Shown here: one piece after another, positions 1,582-11,232 of the stretch | Numbering within the stretch: the first letter of the stretch is position 1 | Layout: each line of letters starts with the position of its first letter | DNA from: Pseudomonas grimontii | GTDB lineage: Bacteria; Pseudomonadota; Gammaproteobacteria; Pseudomonadales; Pseudomonadaceae | Assembly: GCF_007858185.1 (NCBI RefSeq) | Contig: NZ_VFES01000005.1 | Location: 186,001 to 250,000, forward strand | DNA length: 64,000 nt | Reading direction: 5' to 3' | The notes under the pieces: model-generated | Database searches by the model: none | Told to the model about the DNA's origin: nothing | What the model saw: the letters and a program-made list of their open reading frames with translations, nothing else | Made by a program: the position numbers and the translations under genes

Positions 1582-2982
1582 ATGATTGGAAAACCGACGC
1601 GCCTGCTGTTGGCGAGCCTCTCGATACTCATGAGTTCCGGCGCCTGGGCCGATTTCACCGCTACCCCCAGCGAAGCGCGGGCCATTGCCAAGGAAGCCTA
1701 CCTGTATGGCTACCCGGTGGTGGAGATGTACAAGACGCTCTACACCCAGGCCGTTGATAAGGGCGGCGCCAACTTCAAGGCGCCGTTCAACCATATCGGC
1801 AATACCGCCCAGGTGCTCACCCCCAAGGACACCGCGTTCGTGACGCCGAACCTGGACACGCCCTACTCGTTTGTCTGGATGGACCTGCGCAGCGAGCCGC
1901 TGGTGCTGACGCTGCCCAAGATCGAAGACGACCGTTACTACTCGGTGCAATTGATCGACCTCTACACGCAGAACATCGCCTACCTGGGCACCCGCAGCAC
2001 CGGCAACAACGGCGGTCACTACATGATTGCTGGCCCGGACTGGAAAGGTCAGCAGCCGGTGAACGTCGACCGCGTGGTCTACAGCGAAAGCAACATCGCC
2101 TACGCCCTCTACCGCACGCAGTTGTTCGACGAGAAGGACCTGAACAAGGTCAAGCAGATCCAGAACGGCTACAAAGTCCAGTCCCTGAGCAACTACGTGA
2201 AGCAAGCTGCGCCGGCCAAGGCGCCAAAGGTCGCATGGCCCAAGCCCATGGCGACCATGACCGAAGGCCCGCAGCTGTTTCGCTACCTGAACTTCATGCT
2301 GGCCTTCGCCGCGCCCCAGGACAGCGAGAAAGACCTGCTGGCGCGTTTCGCCAAGATCGGTATCGCCCCAGGCGCGCCCTTCAAGGTCAAGGAGTTGACC
2401 GCTGAGCAGCGCAAGGCCCTGGAAGACGGCATCTCCGATGCGCGCGCCGAGTTTGCCGCATTCAAAAAGGACAAGGTCGACACGCACCAGGTCGCCAATG
2501 GCGATTTGTATGGCAGCCGCGACCACTTGAACAATAACTACCTGTACCGCTACGCCGGTGCGGACATGGGGCTTTTCGGTAACTCCGGCGATGAAGTCGC
2601 TTACCTGAGCTACGTCAACGACAGCGAGGGCAAGCCTGCCAACGGTGCACGCCACAGCTACACCGTGCATTTCGCCAAGGACCAGTTGCCACCGGCCGAT
2701 GCGTTCTGGTCGCTGACCATGTACGACGCCAAGACCAAGCAACTGGTGCCCAACCACAAGAAACGTTACGTGATCAACTCGCACATGCTGTCCGGCCTCA
2801 AGCGGGACGCCGATGGCGGCCTGACCCTGGCCCTGCAGCACCACGAACCGCCGAAAGCCGAGCAGAGCAACTGGCTGCCGGCTCCACCCGGTCCGTTCTA
2901 CGCCATCCTGCGGATTTACCTGCCCAAGCCTGAGGTGGGTAACGGCCAGTGGAAACTGCCGCCATTGACGCCGCTTAAGTAA
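1582..2982 (+). CDS. DUF1254/DUF1214 domain exported protein
   Basis: The 466-residue protein has a clear Sec signal peptide (MIGKPTRLLLASLSILMSSG, cut after AWA) and should be periplasmic. The N-terminal half (about residues 40-200; AYLYGYPVVEMY, TPNLDTPYSFVWMDL) matches DUF1254, and the C-terminal part (about 330-450; WSLTMYDAKTKQLVPN, SNWLPAPPGPF) matches DUF1214. These domains usually occur together; their biochemical role is not firmly established. The start at 1582 follows AAGGA at 1568-1572; the longer reading from 1564 would spoil the signal peptide. It appears monocistronic. Confidence 0.85.
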   Translation: MIGKPTRLLLASLSILMSSGAWADFTATPSEARAIAKEAYLYGYPVVEMYKTLYTQAVDKGGANFKAPFNHIGNTAQVLTPKDTAFVTPNLDTPYSFVWMDLRSEPLVLTLPKIEDDRYYSVQLIDLYTQNIAYLGTRSTGNNGGHYMIAGPDWKGQQPVNVDRVVYSESNIAYALYRTQLFDEKDLNKVKQIQNGYKVQSLSNYVKQAAPAKAPKVAWPKPMATMTEGPQLFRYLNFMLAFAAPQDSEKDLLARFAKIGIAPGAPFKVKELTAEQRKALEDGISDARAEFAAFKKDKVDTHQVANGDLYGSRDHLNNNYLYRYAGADMGLFGNSGDEVAYLSYVNDSEGKPANGARHSYTVHFAKDQLPPADAFWSLTMYDAKTKQLVPNHKKRYVINSHMLSGLKRDADGGLTLALQHHEPPKAEQSNWLPAPPGPFYAILRIYLPKPEVGNGQWKLPPLTPLK

Positions 2983-3113
2983 CACCGCGTGCCCGGTCGC
3001 CGCAGGGTCAGGCCGGGCCAGCCCTACCGTGGGCTCTAACCCGTACTGGCGCTGGTTAATCAACCGGTAAAACAGGTAATGTGCGCGCGATTGTCTACGG
3101 AGTTGCACTGCAC

Positions 3114-4661
3114 ATGACTTGCTGGAATGTCCTTGGCCTGGCGCCGGATGCCGATAGCCGCACGATCAAGCGCCAATACGCCGCCCTGCTGAAGAAAACC
3201 CGGCCGGATGATGACCCCGAGGGTTTCCAGCGCCTGCGCGAGGCCTATGAGGCTGCGCTGGCGTGGAGCCAACGGCTGCAGGAAGTCGACGAAGTCGTCA
3301 TCGAAGCCCAGGGCGACACCCTTGCCGACCATTATCAGGCGGCAATGGCCGATGGCAATGCGCTGCCTTTTGAAATCCACCTGTTGCTGCGCGACATCGA
3401 AGGGCATCTGAACCCCGAAGAAACTCGCTGGGCCTTTGAAACCTTCAACTGGCTGACGGCCTGGCAGCGCCTGGAACTGCCCGGCGAGCTGATCGAAAAG
3501 CTCGAGCGCAAGCACCGCAGCGCGTTGCAGCAACCCTTGCGCCAGGCGCTTGAGCAAAAGGACGAGGCCGCCTTCCTGACTGCCTATGCCGCGCGCTCCG
3601 AGCATCCCTGGGTGAACAATCATCCGCATGCCGAGTGGTTCAACCAATGGCTGGCGCGCTTGTTGGCGCAGAGTCATTACTGGTCGAGCGCGGTGTTCGA
3701 CGCAGTGTGCGCTGGCCAAAACTGGCATGGCGGCAGCGGTCATGACTGCCCGGCGGAGGATTGGGCTCGGCTATTGCATCGCCAGCAAGGCCCGGTCTTC
3801 ATGGCACGCCAACGGGCACTGGCCGCCGAAGCGCCCAACAGCCCGCAACAACGGGCTGCCCGACTGCTACTGGCACCGATGAGCCTGGGTCAGCGCCGTG
3901 CCTTCGCCCAACGCTTCGATGAACATGACTGGAAAGCCTGCCAGGCACTCAGTGCAGATATCTACACCGAGCACGCGGCCGAAGCCGAAACGATGCCCGG
4001 CGGTATCGTGTATTTCTGGCAAGGGTGGGACACGGCCATGGATACCTGGCCCTGGATTGTCGCGCTGGTATTGAGCTGCCTGGTAGGCGTGTTGGTGAAT
4101 GCCGAGCCCCTGGCCGGCAACGTGCTGCCGACCTTGGGCTACGGCCTGCTGTGGTCGTTGGGCGCCGTGATCGGCGCCGGATTGGCTTGGCAGGTCTGGC
4201 GCCCGCTGGCTCATCAGTACCGCGTGCTCGATGAACGGCTCAGTGAGCGCCTGCCGCGCTGGTTTAGCCCTACTCACCTGCCGTTGTTGCCGATACGGGA
4301 CCTGCTGCCAGGGCTGGTCCTTGCCGCAGCGCTGGGTTACGCGTTCGGCCCGTTTGCCAGCCTGGCGCTGGTCGCGACCCTGGCGGTTATCGGCGTGATC
4401 AAGCGGCCCTTCATGAACAGCCACACCCCCTGGACCGCCCGCCACCCACGCTGGACGGCCCTGGGCATGGTGCTGTTGGGCATCAGTGGGATTGTGCTGT
4501 ACGCCGGCTTGACGGTGCTCGACAACCAGCAACACGTAACCCGTAACCAGGGCCTGCAACAGTGGACCGAACGCCTGTGCAGCCGCATGCCTCGCTCCGC
4601 CCCCGACTGCCAGGCGCCCGCCACCCAGGCACAGTGGTATGGTCAGGAGGCCGCGCAATGA
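3114..4661 (+). CDS. Membrane-anchored J-domain protein with RPD instead of HPD
   Basis: The 515-residue protein starts with a short J-like domain (residues 1-50: CWNVLGLAPDADSRTIKRQY, then LKKTRPDDDPEGFQRLREAY). The catalytic HPD that stimulates Hsp70/DnaK is RPD here (R30-P31-D32), so normal co-chaperone activity is doubtful. A long helical region follows, then four or five hydrophobic segments (for example WPWIVALVLSCLVGVLVN and LGMVLLGISGIVLYAGL) in the C-terminal third. The start at 3114 is supported by GGAG at 3099-3102. The stop overlaps the next gene's start (ATGA), so the two are translationally coupled and probably work together at the membrane. Confidence 0.75.
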   Translation: MTCWNVLGLAPDADSRTIKRQYAALLKKTRPDDDPEGFQRLREAYEAALAWSQRLQEVDEVVIEAQGDTLADHYQAAMADGNALPFEIHLLLRDIEGHLNPEETRWAFETFNWLTAWQRLELPGELIEKLERKHRSALQQPLRQALEQKDEAAFLTAYAARSEHPWVNNHPHAEWFNQWLARLLAQSHYWSSAVFDAVCAGQNWHGGSGHDCPAEDWARLLHRQQGPVFMARQRALAAEAPNSPQQRAARLLLAPMSLGQRRAFAQRFDEHDWKACQALSADIYTEHAAEAETMPGGIVYFWQGWDTAMDTWPWIVALVLSCLVGVLVNAEPLAGNVLPTLGYGLLWSLGAVIGAGLAWQVWRPLAHQYRVLDERLSERLPRWFSPTHLPLLPIRDLLPGLVLAAALGYAFGPFASLALVATLAVIGVIKRPFMNSHTPWTARHPRWTALGMVLLGISGIVLYAGLTVLDNQQHVTRNQGLQQWTERLCSRMPRSAPDCQAPATQAQWYGQEAAQ

Positions 4662-7560: not shown

Positions 7561-8139
7561 TTATACGTGTCCTGACGGTGTCGTATTCCCCTCCGGGCAG
7601 ATCTGCAATGCCGGCGTATCGAACGAAGGGTGTTCCGATAAAAGACGATGCCACTCCATTCGAAACCAGGGCGTGAATTGCCCTTGTGACGCTGAAAGTC
7701 GAGCTGATATTTCGGCTCGCGTCCACCACTTGATCTCGCTGACTTCTTCAGTTGCCGGGCAGACCACAGCGTCAGATTGCGCAACCAATACATGACATAA
7801 CTCATGTTCCGCACCGATCGAACCAAAGTGGGCATGGTACTCAAAACTATATAAAAACCGGCTGGAGGCAGAGATGCCTAATTCTTCACGCAGACGACGA
7901 GACGCAGCATCCAGAATAGTCTCTCCCGGTGCCGGATGACTGCAGCACGCATTCGACCAAAAACCTGGCCAAAGCATTTTACCTGCGGCACGACGTTGAA
8001 GCAGATGACGCCCTTCACTGTCGATCAGATGCACTGAAAATGCGCGATGCAGCTTTCCCTCTCCCAAGTGTGCGATGCGTTTGTCACACACTCCGATCTG
8101 TACATCATTGGCATCAACTAACACTACATCATTGGTCAT
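7561..8139 (-). CDS. idi: Isopentenyl-diphosphate delta-isomerase, type I
   Basis: The 192-residue enzyme interconverts isopentenyl and dimethylallyl diphosphate, balancing the C5 pools for prenyl diphosphate synthesis. The Nudix fold is visible: LHRAFSVHLID, the catalytic-cysteine region SNACCSHPAPGE, the Nudix-like helix ASRRLREELGI, and the metal-binding segment GAEHELCHVLVA. A start at 8139 (MTNDVV) has AAGGGA 8-9 bases upstream; the longer form from 8160 is less likely. Pseudomonads make IPP and DMAPP by the MEP pathway, where Idi is dispensable, so an idi gene next to a terpene cyclase points to boosted precursor supply for this locus. Base composition is less GC-rich than the flanks, consistent with acquisition by transfer. 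Confidence 0.9.
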   Translation of the reverse strand: MTNDVVLVDANDVQIGVCDKRIAHLGEGKLHRAFSVHLIDSEGRHLLQRRAAGKMLWPGFWSNACCSHPAPGETILDAASRRLREELGISASSRFLYSFEYHAHFGSIGAEHELCHVLVAQSDAVVCPATEEVSEIKWWTRAEISARLSASQGQFTPWFRMEWHRLLSEHPSFDTPALQICPEGNTTPSGHV

Positions 8140-8174
8140 TCTGTATTCCCTTCGGTGCAATTACGCGCGCCCTC

Positions 8175-8212: not shown

Positions 8213-9010
8213 TCAGCGGACTCGTCCCCAGGCGCTGACGAATGTCAACGCCGCGGCGGTAAACGCGGAGTCGTCACGCAGACGGGCCATGGCATCAAGG
8301 TCGTCTTGAGTGAGTAACTTGAGTTTCAGCAGAGCAGGCCCAGCCTGTGCGGTGGTTGCAGCCCAGAAGGCATCGGCTGGGCTTTTGTCTCCGATTCGGC
8401 CTTCAAAGGTGCAATGCCCAACGTTGGAGAGTCCCCGATCACGTAACTGGCCGGGGAGAGTGTCGGCCCAGAGCATATCGGAACCGATGGACTGCTCCAG
8501 GAGGGTAACTCCGGCCTGGGCTACTTTTCGGAACACAGGGTTCGCCGCTATCAAGCTCGGTCGCAGACTCACGTCTTCGATCACCAGCCAACCACCCGGG
8601 CGGACCCAAGTGATGGCTCGCGTCAATATGTCCTCGCGTTCGGTGAGGTGGCACAGAAGCGCGCGGATGTGCACCACGTCAAAGGAGGCAGCAGGAAAAT
8701 CATCGGTCGCCGCATTATGGGTCATCACCCGAATGCGAGGAATATTGGTCAGGAATCGAGTGTCGATGTCGGTGGCGGTGACGGTCGCGTTGGGATAGCG
8801 CTTGCTCAGCCAGCGGGCGAGCGATCCAGCACCGGCGCCGAGATCGAGGATGGCAGGCTTGCCCGGAAGATCCAGCTGATCGAAAACCGCTTGGCTCAAC
8901 GGGTCAAAGGCACGCTCCAGGGTGCGTAACCGTTCCAATTGGCCTGCGTGCTGATCAGCAAGATAACTGTTGGTGTAGCCGGGCTCCTTGGCAAAGTCAG
9001 TAATGGTCAC
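8213..9010 (-). CDS. SAM-dependent methyltransferase of the terpenoid locus
   Basis: The 265-residue class I methyltransferase has SAM motif I ILDLGAGAGS (residues 54-63), the acidic loop TATDID (78-83), a post-I segment FPAASFDVVHIRALLCHL, and motif III RPGGWLVIEDVSL. Its GTG start overlaps the stop of the cyclase-P450 gene (GTGA at 9010-9007), implying coupled translation and a shared pathway. Two roles fit: C-methylation of a prenyl diphosphate before cyclisation, as in the 2-methylisoborneol, 2-methylenebornane and sodorifen pathways, or O-methylation of a hydroxyl or carboxyl made by the P450. The sequence looks more like a general small-molecule methyltransferase than the classical GPP C-methyltransferases as I remember them, so I leave the substrate open. 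Confidence 0.82.
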   Translation of the reverse strand: MTITDFAKEPGYTNSYLADQHAGQLERLRTLERAFDPLSQAVFDQLDLPGKPAILDLGAGAGSLARWLSKRYPNATVTATDIDTRFLTNIPRIRVMTHNAATDDFPAASFDVVHIRALLCHLTEREDILTRAITWVRPGGWLVIEDVSLRPSLIAANPVFRKVAQAGVTLLEQSIGSDMLWADTLPGQLRDRGLSNVGHCTFEGRIGDKSPADAFWAATTAQAGPALLKLKLLTQDDLDAMARLRDDSAFTAAALTFVSAWGRVR

Positions 9011-11232
9011 AGTACGACCTCCAGTTGATCGGGGCAGCGGTTGAGGAATCCGCGTTCGGCAGGGGTGAACCCAGGAGCCCAGCGCACGTTTGGAAAGGTC
9101 TGTAGCAGCATGCGAGCGCTGATCGTGATCTCCATACGTGCCAGCATCGATCCCAGACAGAAGTGGCGCCCCGCTCCGAAGGCGAAATGACTGCTCGCCT
9201 GTTCGGTGCGCGACATGTTGAAGGTGTCCGGGTCGGTGAATTGGTTCGGATCGCGGTTGGCCGAACCGATAAGACAGGCCAGGGTCGCGCCAGCAGGAAT
9301 CGTTCCCGATGGCAGCAGCAGCGACTCACGGGCTTCGCGAAGTACGAGTTGCAAAGGAGGGTTGCGTCGCAGGGTCTCGGCGAGCGCATTGTCCATCAGG
9401 TCTGGATTAGCCATCACCGCGTCTTTGACGCCAGGTTCGCTCAACAGGTTGACAATCAGATTCGCCAGGGCACCGTGACTGGTCTCGCTACCCGCAGTCA
9501 TCAGGATCGCGCAGTAGGACCGGACGAACGTCTCGGACAACGGTTGACCGTCAATCCTTGCCGCCAGAAGCTGCGAGATCAGGTCGTCTGAGGGCTCAGC
9601 ACGACGAGCGTCGATGTGCGGCTGGATGAAGTCGTAGAAACTGTCTCGGTTGGATAACCCGCCGGTCAACAGTGCCGGATCCTGTCGATAGTTGCCCATG
9701 TAAGCGAAGCCGATGGCACACCAACGCTTCAGCTGCTCCACCTCCTCGCGGGTTTCAGCCGGAAGACCCAGCGCACGGGCCATCACCCGCACCGGCAGCG
9801 CTGCGGTGAAATCGGCAATGAGGTCCACCTGGGGTCGCCCGTGCATCTGCGCCAGAAGGTCCGCGGTCACCGACGTGATGGATACTTCAAGCGCTGCCAG
9901 GGCCTTGCTGCGAAACGAAGGGCTAAGCAACGCACGGTGCTGCGCATGTTCACACCCGTCCATCGTGACAATAGTGTGTCCCAGCAGCGGCCCAATCTGC
10001 CAGGTGTAGTTGTTGTTGCTCGCCCCAGGATGGGTCAATGCGGCTTTGACATCCACATGCCGACTGACTAGCCACACATCGGTGGGCTCGTCATAAACGA
10101 TCGGCAGACTGGTACGTAACCGCTCATACAAGGGGTAAGGGTCGATTTCGAACTGCCGGGATTTAAGGGTCGGTGGAGTAAGTTTCAGGTCCACTTGCCG
10201 GTTGTCCTGTGCCGTGGAATCGGCGGCATGCAGGTGATAGCGAGAAACGCTCCGGTGCCAGTCGCCCGCCGCCCGGACAACCTGACGCAGCCGGTCCGGG
10301 TCGGTCGCGACGCACCGCCGGTGATTTGCATGCTGGGTGGCGACCGCCGTGAACTGCGCAACCGCCGTGTTCACCATTTGATGGGCGGATTCAATCGCGG
10401 CAGGCCAGTCCATGCCAGCGGTATCCGCGAGGATTGAAACCAGGTTGAAGCGTTCACCACACACCACATCTTTGGCAATCGAATGGATATCGTTCGTCCA
10501 GGCGATGATATCGGCGCCGTGTTCACGCAACGTGTTCCACCATGCGGTGTCCGCTGGATGCTCGTACGGGTCCAGACTTTCGGCCGCATCGATAAGATCA
10601 AAGAAGAACAGTGCGCCGAAAGCGTCCCGGCGCAACGGCAGGTACTCGGCCAATGTGAGCGCCTTGTCGGTTTCCCGCACACGAACCAGCGTCGCCTGCG
10701 CACGCAGATGTTGGATCAAATGTCGCACAAGCCTATGCCGCCATTGATCGCCCCCCAAACACCGGGTCTGAGGCCACAGATCGTCGACCAGAACAACGAG
10801 CATTGGGTCATCAAATCGGCTGATTTCACCTGATGAATCAGCATCGCCGCCTTCGGTCAACGCCTCTACTGCGATGATGAAACGATCCAACGCACCGTTT
10901 TCCGCCCAGGGTCCATCATCGATTCGGTCATCGAGAGTGAGCGCCCACAGATACCAGCACACCAGAATCTCGGCTTGGGGCGTGGGCGCCCTCCCGCACA
11001 GCGCAACGCCCAGTTCGAGCAGCGCGGTGGTGCTCAACCGATGTGCACCACGGCGTCCGATCAAGCCGTAGCGCTGCGCCCAAGCGAGCGCATGCGTGCG
11101 CAACCGCTCACTGTCGGAACGCGGTGGCGGACCGGCGAAAGGAAGCCGGATCTCGGGAATAACCAGCTGTGTCGTCGGTAAATGACCGCCGTAGGGGGTG
11201 CCGGGAGCACCTTCCCGGAGTTCCGCTGCCAT
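9007..11232 (-). CDS. Terpene cyclase-cytochrome P450 fusion
   Basis: The 741-residue protein joins two enzymes. Residues about 1-340 form a class I terpene cyclase: the metal-binding aspartates are D101-D102-R-I-D105-D106, the second metal site is N247-D-I-H-S251-x3-D255 (canonical N/S/E with Asp for Glu), and an RY pair sits at 331-332 (WHRSVSRY). After a short linker, residues about 358-741 form a soluble bacterial P450: I-helix TAGSETS (579-585), ExxR at E619-R622, and heme loop FAFGAGRHFCLG with Cys692. The predicted product is a cyclised terpene oxidised by the same polypeptide. No redox partner is nearby. GAGGA lies 6 bases before the ATG at 11232. Both halves keep their catalytic residues in one uninterrupted frame, so this is not a broken pair. 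Related single-domain cyclases include 2-methylisoborneol-type synthases. Confidence 0.9.
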   Translation of the reverse strand: MAAELREGAPGTPYGGHLPTTQLVIPEIRLPFAGPPPRSDSERLRTHALAWAQRYGLIGRRGAHRLSTTALLELGVALCGRAPTPQAEILVCWYLWALTLDDRIDDGPWAENGALDRFIIAVEALTEGGDADSSGEISRFDDPMLVVLVDDLWPQTRCLGGDQWRHRLVRHLIQHLRAQATLVRVRETDKALTLAEYLPLRRDAFGALFFFDLIDAAESLDPYEHPADTAWWNTLREHGADIIAWTNDIHSIAKDVVCGERFNLVSILADTAGMDWPAAIESAHQMVNTAVAQFTAVATQHANHRRCVATDPDRLRQVVRAAGDWHRSVSRYHLHAADSTAQDNRQVDLKLTPPTLKSRQFEIDPYPLYERLRTSLPIVYDEPTDVWLVSRHVDVKAALTHPGASNNNYTWQIGPLLGHTIVTMDGCEHAQHRALLSPSFRSKALAALEVSITSVTADLLAQMHGRPQVDLIADFTAALPVRVMARALGLPAETREEVEQLKRWCAIGFAYMGNYRQDPALLTGGLSNRDSFYDFIQPHIDARRAEPSDDLISQLLAARIDGQPLSETFVRSYCAILMTAGSETSHGALANLIVNLLSEPGVKDAVMANPDLMDNALAETLRRNPPLQLVLREARESLLLPSGTIPAGATLACLIGSANRDPNQFTDPDTFNMSRTEQASSHFAFGAGRHFCLGSMLARMEITISARMLLQTFPNVRWAPGFTPAERGFLNRCPDQLEVVL

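What the first reader, a model, noticed from the sequence alone, without database searches (positions are those of the whole stretch)
9007..11232. Terpene cyclase fused to a cytochrome P450 in one open reading frame
Both halves keep their full catalytic sets: DDRIDD and NDIHS...D plus the RY pair for a class I cyclase; AGSETS, ExxR and FGAGRHFCLG for a P450. The reading frame is continuous. I know of bacterial cyclases and P450s as neighbours, but not of a characterised bacterial polypeptide that carries out cyclisation and oxidation together; I cannot search to confirm. The second metal motif ends in Asp rather than Glu.
Basis: partly seen in the sequence, partly recalled or inferred. Interest (0 to 1): 0.88.

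Follow-up and report, generated by a model that had tools for sequence, protein, structure and literature searches.

The report
Terpene cyclase fused to a P450
A single bacterial protein joins the enzyme that folds a terpene with the enzyme that oxidises it; the same joined gene is kept in Pseudomonas and three other bacterial genera, which makes it a natural test case for whether such enzymes hand their product directly from one active site to the next.

Summary
Window 9007-11232 (minus strand) is one 741-codon frame: a class I terpene synthase (residues ~23-335), a ~20-residue linker and a cytochrome P450 (~356-741), both with their usual catalytic residues. It is no assembly error: 20 different intact copies were read in Pseudomonas, Pantoea (plasmid), Proteus and a Paraburkholderia MAG. 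Both halves are under purifying selection (median dN/dS 0.17 and 0.10). The Proteus copy has drifted to 39% G+C with the fusion intact, so the fusion looks old. A methyltransferase gene overlaps the fusion's stop codon and a type 1 IPP isomerase usually follows. The host has two trans-prenyl synthases, so FPP is the likely substrate. Best reading: FPP is cyclised, the product oxidised by the attached P450, then probably methylated on oxygen. The Paraburkholderia genome keeps the fusion without a detectable methyltransferase or isomerase, which argues, moderately, against the methyltransferase supplying the substrate. Product, oxidation and channelling are untested. Ten searches of open-access papers listed no such bacterial fusion; subscription papers were not searchable. 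The annotation of the Pantoea copy says only 'cytochrome P450'.

The parts
9007..11232 (-). Terpene synthase-cytochrome P450 fusion gene, 741 aa
   Evidence: 19 further intact copies read
10228..11166 (-). Class I terpene synthase domain, residues about 23-335
   Evidence: PF19086; model matches T-muurolol synthase at Z 33.5 over 296 residues, rmsd 2.4
10915..10932 (-). Asp-rich metal motif DDRIDD, residues 101-106
   Evidence: Identical in 20 of 20 copies
10630..10632 (-). Arg201, 46 residues before the second metal motif: likely diphosphate sensor (role recalled)
   Evidence: Identical in 20 of 20
10468..10494 (-). Second metal motif NDIHSIAKD, residues 247-255, last ligand Asp
   Evidence: N247, D248, S251, K254, D255 identical in 20 of 20
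10237..10242 (-). RY pair, residues 331-332
   Evidence: Identical in 20 of 20
10168..10227 (-). Inter-domain linker, residues 336-355
   Evidence: Median dN/dS 0.36, laxer than both domains; same length in all 20 rows printed
9010..10167 (-). Cytochrome P450 domain, residues 356-741
   Evidence: PF00067; best PDB sequence match P450 YjiB 7y97, E 1.9e-54; NCBIfam TIGR04538 242.6 bits, cut-off 500
9478..9495 (-). I-helix motif AGSETS, residues 580-585
   Evidence: E583 kept in 19 of 20, V in Pantoea
9367..9378 (-). ExxR motif ETLR, residues 619-622
   Evidence: E619 and R622 in 20 of 20
9151..9180 (-). Haem-binding loop FGAGRHFCLG with Cys692
   Evidence: C692 and H690 in 20 of 20
8213..9010 (-). 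Class I SAM-dependent methyltransferase, 265 aa; its GTG start overlaps the fusion's TGA stop
   Evidence: ATGA or GTGA at the fusion's stop in 20 of 20 copies
7561..8160 (-). Type 1 isopentenyl-diphosphate isomerase (start may be the ATG at 8139)
   Evidence: NF002995 175 bits over cut-off 127; TIGR02150 150 over 105.8

Best explanation
A three-gene terpenoid operon whose first product is a bifunctional enzyme. The N-terminal class I terpene synthase ionises and cyclises a prenyl diphosphate, most likely FPP from the housekeeping FPP synthase, with the operon's isomerase raising the DMAPP supply. The C-terminal P450, fed electrons by ferredoxins encoded elsewhere, oxidises the cyclised product. 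The methyltransferase, whose start overlaps the fusion's stop, then probably caps the new hydroxyl or carboxyl group. Tethering keeps a volatile, poorly soluble sesquiterpene next to the P450. Shown here: domains, conserved catalytic residues, conservation of the fused state, operon structure and purifying selection. Inferred: substrate, order of steps, oxidation by the P450, electron source, O-methylation. Unknown: product, and whether the intermediate is channelled.
For: Both domains pass Pfam cut-offs in one frame. The metal-binding residues and the haem cysteine are kept in 20 of 20 intact copies. Purifying selection: median dN/dS TS 0.17, P450 0.10, linker 0.36. The TS model matches sesquiterpene synthases best (T-muurolol Z 33.5, 1-epi-cubenol 33.2, 10-epi-cubebol 32.9), with a diterpene synthase, 9m25, about one Z unit behind. 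Only two PF00348 synthases lie in the genome. A methyltransferase follows in 21 of 22 other loci (one truncated) and an isomerase in 18 of 22. Among 25 genomes of the genus, type 1 isomerases above cut-off occur in 4, three of them the fusion carriers. The methyltransferase model's 50 best rows include the O- or S-methyltransferases OxaG, RoqN and TmtA and the carboxyl methyltransferase JHAMT (activities of OxaG and RoqN recalled).
Against: No chemistry was tested. Structure and sequence of the TS do not fix chain length: the top PDB sequence hit, 9m25, is a diterpene synthase. The P450 half modelled poorly (pLDDT under 50 over much of it; whole model mean 56.9, pTM 0.51), so domain arrangement and a channel could not be examined. 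No ferredoxin or reductase lies in the operon. The Pantoea copy has lost the I-helix acid (E583V), so its P450 may do different or no oxygen activation. The methyltransferase's single best structural match, 3mgg (Z 21.1), has no stated function, and its best sequence matches are N-methyltransferases. Three of 23 copies are interrupted, so the pathway may be dispensable in some strains; one of these is a single frameshift that could be a sequencing error.
Confidence: 0.68

Rival explanations
1. The methyltransferase acts first, C-methylating a prenyl diphosphate (as in 2-methylisoborneol or sodorifen-type pathways), and the fusion cyclises and oxidises this non-canonical substrate.
For: The methyltransferase is the fusion's most constant neighbour (21 of 22 loci), also in Pantoea, which lacks the adjacent isomerase. 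Such pathways exist in Pseudomonas (2-methylenebornane in P. fluorescens; PMC10881772, passages seen). The host also has a separate terpene synthase beside a weakly GPPMT-like methyltransferase (L068, 22.9 bits, cut-off 400).
Against: The operon methyltransferase gives no NCBIfam match to GPPMT at E 0.001, and aligns with the L068 methyltransferase over only 134 residues at 26%. The Paraburkholderia genome keeps an intact fusion with no methyltransferase homologue at E 0.001; but it is a MAG of unreported completeness, and its low dN/dS to the window copy (0.16 TS, 0.13 P450) may largely predate the loss. The model's rows are mostly heteroatom methyltransferases (many activities recalled), though a family missing from that list is not excluded.
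Confidence: 0.22
2. The chain is a convenience of co-expression: the P450 works on some other substrate, or has lost oxygen activation in some lineages, and no coupled cyclisation-oxidation takes place.
For: Pantoea's P450 lacks the I-helix acid. The linker is the least constrained part apart from the N-terminus. The nearest NCBIfam P450 subfamily is associated with cyclodipeptides, not terpenes (cut-off not met).
Against: The P450 half is the more constrained half (dN/dS 0.10), with Cys692, E619 and R622 in 20 of 20. Apart from the decayed copies, no copy is split.
Confidence: 0.15
3. The cyclase uses GPP or GGPP rather than FPP, giving an oxidised mono- or diterpenoid.
For: The closest PDB sequence is a diterpene synthase (9m25). 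Structural hits include 1,8-cineole and linalool/nerolidol synthases. FPP synthase releases some GPP (general knowledge).
Against: Only two PF00348 synthases, with open frames of 309 and 341 aa, lie in the genome; they are read here as FPP and octaprenyl synthases (assignment inferred). Most of the 50 structural rows are sesquiterpene synthases.
Confidence: 0.25
4. The fusion is a sequencing or assembly artefact.
For: None found.
Against: The same continuous frame occurs in 20 different copies from separate genomes or records, including a 68% identical Proteus copy at 39% G+C.
Confidence: 0.005

Closest known systems
Single-domain bacterial class I terpene synthases (T-muurolol, isoafricanol, pentalenene, epi-isozizaene synthases)
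   Same: Fold (Z 33.5 to T-muurolol synthase), Asp-rich motif, NSE-type motif, RY pair
   Different: Only about 22% identical to the best structural match; third NSE ligand is Asp; carries a P450 at its C terminus; NCBIfam isoafricanol synthase 77 bits against a cut-off of 500
CYP170A1, bifunctional albaflavenone monooxygenase/terpene synthase (NF051859)
   Same: One polypeptide associated with both P450 and terpene synthase activity
   Different: CYP170A1 has both activities in one P450 fold (recalled); here there are two complete domains. Match 52 bits against cut-off 700
Streptomyces operons with separate P450 and terpene cyclase genes (L083, L084)
   Same: P450 and cyclase encoded side by side; in L083 the two reading frames overlap by four bases
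   Different: Two proteins, P450 gene first, followed by a polyprenyl synthase
Terpene cyclases fused to other domains: HAD-TC-beta drimenol synthases (PMC12365925), EutB reductase-cyclase (PMC11574762), two-domain geosmin synthase (recalled)
   Same: Bacterial terpene cyclase fused to a second domain
   Different: The second domain is a phosphatase, a truncated HMBPP reductase or a second cyclase, not a P450 (PMC11574762 passages; PMC12365925 listing and abstract start)
CypX-type and YjiB-type P450s (TIGR04538; PDB 3nc3, 7y97)
   Same: P450 half is most similar to these
   Different: Stand-alone enzymes; TIGR04538 242.6 bits against cut-off 500. The three best-ranked stand-alone plasmid hits are 35-39% identical and show no annotated terpene synthase within 8 kb

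Membership tests
Class I terpene synthase (PF19086) | Profile match above the curated cut-off | tested here: met
   96.2 bits against 23.7
Class I terpene synthase (PF19086) | Asp-rich motif and NSE/DTE motif | tested here: met
   DDRIDD and NDxxSxxxD in 20 of 20; the last ligand is Asp rather than the usual Glu
Class I terpene synthase (PF19086) | Alpha-helical terpenoid synthase fold | tested here: met
   Z 33.5, rmsd 2.4 over 296 residues to 9hqd
Class I terpene synthase (PF19086) | Mg2+-dependent cyclisation of a prenyl diphosphate | not testable with these tools
   Needs enzyme assay
Cytochrome P450 (PF00067) | Profile match, haem-ligand Cys loop, ExxR | tested here: met
   104.9 bits against 22.8; C692, E619, R622 in 20 of 20
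Cytochrome P450 (PF00067) | Acid-alcohol pair in the I helix | tested here: met
   E583/T584 in 19 of 20 copies including the window; Pantoea has V583
Cytochrome P450 (PF00067) | P450 fold in a structure model | tested here: inconclusive
   That half of the model has pLDDT mostly under 50
CYP170A1 bifunctional enzyme (NF051859) | NCBIfam equivalog cut-off | tested here: not met
   52.4 bits against 700
Cyclodipeptide-synthase-associated P450 (TIGR04538) | NCBIfam subfamily cut-off | tested here: not met
   242.6 bits against 500
Isoafricanol synthase (NF041624) | NCBIfam equivalog cut-off | tested here: not met
   77 bits against 500
Geranyl diphosphate C-methyltransferase (operon methyltransferase) | NCBIfam NF041943 match | tested here: not met
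   Not among the 15 families matched at E 0.001 by window 8213-9010
Type 1 IPP isomerase (7561-8160) | NCBIfam equivalog cut-offs | tested here: met
   NF002995 175.3 against 127; TIGR02150 150.4 against 105.8

The most novel reading that the evidence does not exclude
A natural cyclase-P450 in which the cyclised hydrocarbon passes from the terpene synthase pocket to the haem pocket of the same chain (or its dimer partner) without release, so that the organism never emits the free hydrocarbon. This would be the first cyclise-and-oxidise polypeptide of its kind in bacteria, spread by horizontal transfer through at least four genera.
Probability: 0.3. Interest if true: 0.8.

Novelty: new variant of a known kind. 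Interest (0 to 1): 0.62.

Why it matters
Terpene cyclases and P450s are the two steps that make most terpenoid diversity, and whether their poorly soluble intermediates are channelled is an old question usually approached with engineered fusions. A natural, apparently old and conserved fusion makes the question directly testable, offers a ready-made linker for engineering, and points to a terpenoid pathway in soil and plant Pseudomonas for which I found no description. The Pantoea copy, the one whose annotation was seen, is labelled only as a cytochrome P450, so the terpene synthase half is easily overlooked.

Tried and rejected
Artefact: rejected, since the frame recurs in 20 different copies. 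Unfused orthologues as the ancestor: none found in 398 genomes of the genus, in the genome-contig scan, which used two tight peptide patterns and so reaches only close relatives, or in plasmids, where 1 of 1319 matching records covers 80% or more of the fusion (30 rows listed). The next terpene synthases on plasmids are 25-29% identical (13 further records) and the three best-ranked other P450s 35-39%, so the parents of the fusion are not identified. A search of 369 genomes of the class with the TS half matched only the own genome. PF19086 in 398 genomes of the phylum matched 17 places in 11 genomes: 3 are this fusion and 3 lie in other long frames; two of those three were scanned and have non-P450 partners (L072, L063), the third (L064) was not. 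Other phyla could not be sampled with the genome search, so an independent TS-P450 fusion elsewhere, for example in Actinomycetota, is not excluded.

A promoter/terminator scan gave counts near chance. AlphaFold with 14 close sequences modelled the TS but not the P450, so no channel or interface could be judged. Methyltransferase relatives: one Streptomyces plasmid relative (39%) lies near a terpene synthase, a P450 and an uppS-like gene; another lies in a plasmid region with a P450 but no annotated terpene gene; the S. clavuligerus record has no annotation there. No prenyl-diphosphate C-methyltransferase is named in the 50 rows, which does not exclude kinship. Literature: ten searches seen as listings with abstract openings; the listings are capped (20 of 81, 10 of 5,849). 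Passages seen of PMC11574762, PMC11026467 and PMC10881772. Subscription literature and bioRxiv were not searchable, so absence from print is not claimed.

Mended at the one check: confidence in the best explanation lowered from 0.70 to 0.68, and that in the methylated-substrate rival raised from 0.20 to 0.22, because the Paraburkholderia dN/dS may predate the loss of its methyltransferase.
Full report
WHAT IS THERE. Window 9007-11232 on the minus strand is a single 741-aa reading frame. Pfam places a class I terpene synthase (PF19086, residues 93-292, E 2.8e-27) and a cytochrome P450 (PF00067, residues 379-713, E 5.9e-30) in it. The AlphaFold model (mean pLDDT 56.9, pTM 0.51) is confident over most of residues 21-330 and aligns there over 296 residues with T-muurolol synthase (Z 33.5, rmsd 2.4, 22% identity); 1-epi-cubenol, 10-epi-cubebol, selinadiene, epi-isozizaene and pentalenene synthases and a Streptomyces diterpene synthase follow within about two Z units. 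The P450 half was modelled poorly, so its identity rests on sequence: 7y97 at E 1.9e-54 in the PDB and TIGR04538 at 242.6 bits, below its cut-off of 500.

IT IS A FAMILY. A search of 95 related genomes found the fusion in 3. A search of 398 genomes of the same genus found 11 with a match spanning at least residues 12-739 (80-100% identity, own genome included) and one with two fragments. A scan of the genome-contig collection (84,980 species by its description) found 16 loci: 13 intact copies (11 Pseudomonas, Proteus myxofaciens at 68%, a Paraburkholderia MAG at 81%) and three decayed copies in Pseudomonas. One of 72,556 plasmids carries it, pPAT9B01 of Pantoea sp. At-9b, annotated only as cytochrome P450. 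Key residues in these 20: the metal-motif residues, R201, the RY pair, E619, R622, H690 and C692 are identical in 20 of 20; E583 is Val in Pantoea alone; S582 is Gly and R689 is Pro in Paraburkholderia; R689 is Lys in Proteus. The scan patterns were tight, so distant members would be missed.

AGE AND SELECTION. My own Nei-Gojobori script over the 190 pairs of the 20 copies gave median dN/dS of 0.17 for the TS half (171 pairs with dS defined), 0.10 for the P450 half (171), 0.36 for the linker (177) and 0.41 for the first 22 residues (129); pairs with saturated dS were dropped, against the window that of Proteus, and the two short regions are crude, with some proportions reaching 1. The Proteus copy is 39% G+C overall and 27% at third positions, in both halves alike, against about 60-65% in Pseudomonas; its 1.2 kb of flank is also 39%, the rest of its genome was not measured. 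It appears to have taken on its host's composition while staying fused. Trees of the two halves share the well-supported groups L043+L007, L045+L032 and L042+L028+L030; most deeper forks are unresolved in both, the TS bootstrap had not settled, and starred groups of one tree (L031, L044, L053 for the P450; window, L039, L052 for the TS) are unresolved in the other. In 6 of 16 loci the operon sits beside the same racemase gene as in the window; L042, with a flank on one side only, shares genes there; 9 share none of the seven neighbour genes tested, some of these with short flanks. With four host genera this points to horizontal transfer; no mobility gene was sought systematically.

THE OPERON. 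The fusion's stop codon lies in an ATGA or GTGA in 20 of 20 copies, in Paraburkholderia without a methyltransferase behind it. A methyltransferase follows in 21 of 22 other loci tested (one truncated to 38 residues) and a type 1 isomerase in 18 of 22; the four without an adjacent isomerase are Proteus (contig ends soon after the methyltransferase), Paraburkholderia, Pantoea and the decayed P. orientalis copy. A wider look finds an isomerase elsewhere in Proteus, none on the Pantoea plasmid (its chromosome was not searched), and neither gene in the 6.0-Mb Paraburkholderia MAG, whose completeness was not reported. Among 25 genomes of the genus, type 1 isomerases over the cut-off occur in four: the three fusion carriers and G016, which has two and no fusion.

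HOW IT PROBABLY WORKS. The genome has two PF00348 synthases, read here as the housekeeping FPP and octaprenyl synthases by length and number (assignment inferred), so no GGPP synthase is apparent and FPP is the likeliest substrate. The TS half cyclises it, the P450 oxidises the product with electrons from host ferredoxins (inferred), and the methyltransferase acts last. The last point rests on the Paraburkholderia fusion staying intact without it (moderate evidence: a MAG, and the constraint measured may predate the loss), on the lack of an NF041943 (GPP methyltransferase) match, and on a model (mean pLDDT 84.6) closest to 3mgg (Z 21.1, no stated function) and then to methyltransferases such as TmtA, RoqN, GtmA and OxaG, with phosphoethanolamine N-methyltransferases and JHAMT below. 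None of this is biochemical proof, and the alternative of a methylated substrate keeps about 0.22.

WHAT IS KNOWN. Ten full-text searches of open-access papers returned cyclases fused to HAD phosphatases (PMC12365925; [quoted passage not shown] passages), and cyclase-P450 pairs encoded as separate genes, as in Dictyostelium (PMC6524965; listing and abstract start) and fumagillin-type fungal pairs (PMC11026467; passages), but no TS-P450 fusion among the rows shown. CYP170A1 is the nearest concept, but it carries terpene synthase activity within the P450 fold itself (recalled), and its model does not fit here (52 bits against 700). The fusion is therefore a new architecture built of two known families: a new variant rather than a new kind.

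LIMITS. Catalysis, product and channelling are untested. Phyla other than the window's own were examined only through the plasmid collection and the tight genome-contig scan. The roles given to R201 and the RY pair, and the CYP170A1 and geosmin synthase comparisons, are recalled and come from no call.

Noticed in passing
L072:1219-3261 (genome G970, same phylum): A 681-aa frame joins a terpene synthase (PF19086, E 8.6e-24) to a SAM methyltransferase domain (PF13489, E 2.3e-11): a different terpene synthase fusion.
   Followed up: partly
L063:1222-3033 (genome G903; G1047 has a like-sized frame, L064, not scanned): A 604-aa frame joins a terpene-synthase domain to most of a type 2 IPP isomerase (TIGR02151, 208 bits, below the cut-off of 281, profile positions 3-245 of 338); its C-terminal end looks cut or frameshifted.
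   Followed up: partly
L004:219-1352 and 1450-2496; L068:1252-2280 and 2296-3411 (own genome, contigs C43 and C11): The same genome has three further terpene synthases: an adjacent pair, and one beside a weakly GPPMT-like methyltransferase with another type 1 isomerase about 5 kb away.
   Followed up: partly
L035:11962-14172 (Pantoea sp. At-9b plasmid pPAT9B01): The Pantoea fusion has Val in place of the conserved I-helix acid (AGSVTS), while the haem loop is intact.
   Followed up: no
L048, L049, L054 (three Pseudomonas strains): Three copies of the fusion are interrupted by a frameshift or internal deletion, so the gene may be being lost in some strains; the single frameshift in L048 could be a sequencing error.
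   Followed up: no
L080:1495-8807 (Streptomyces sp. YIM 121038 plasmid): A relative of the operon methyltransferase (39%) lies near a terpene synthase, a cytochrome P450 and an uppS-like gene.
   Followed up: no
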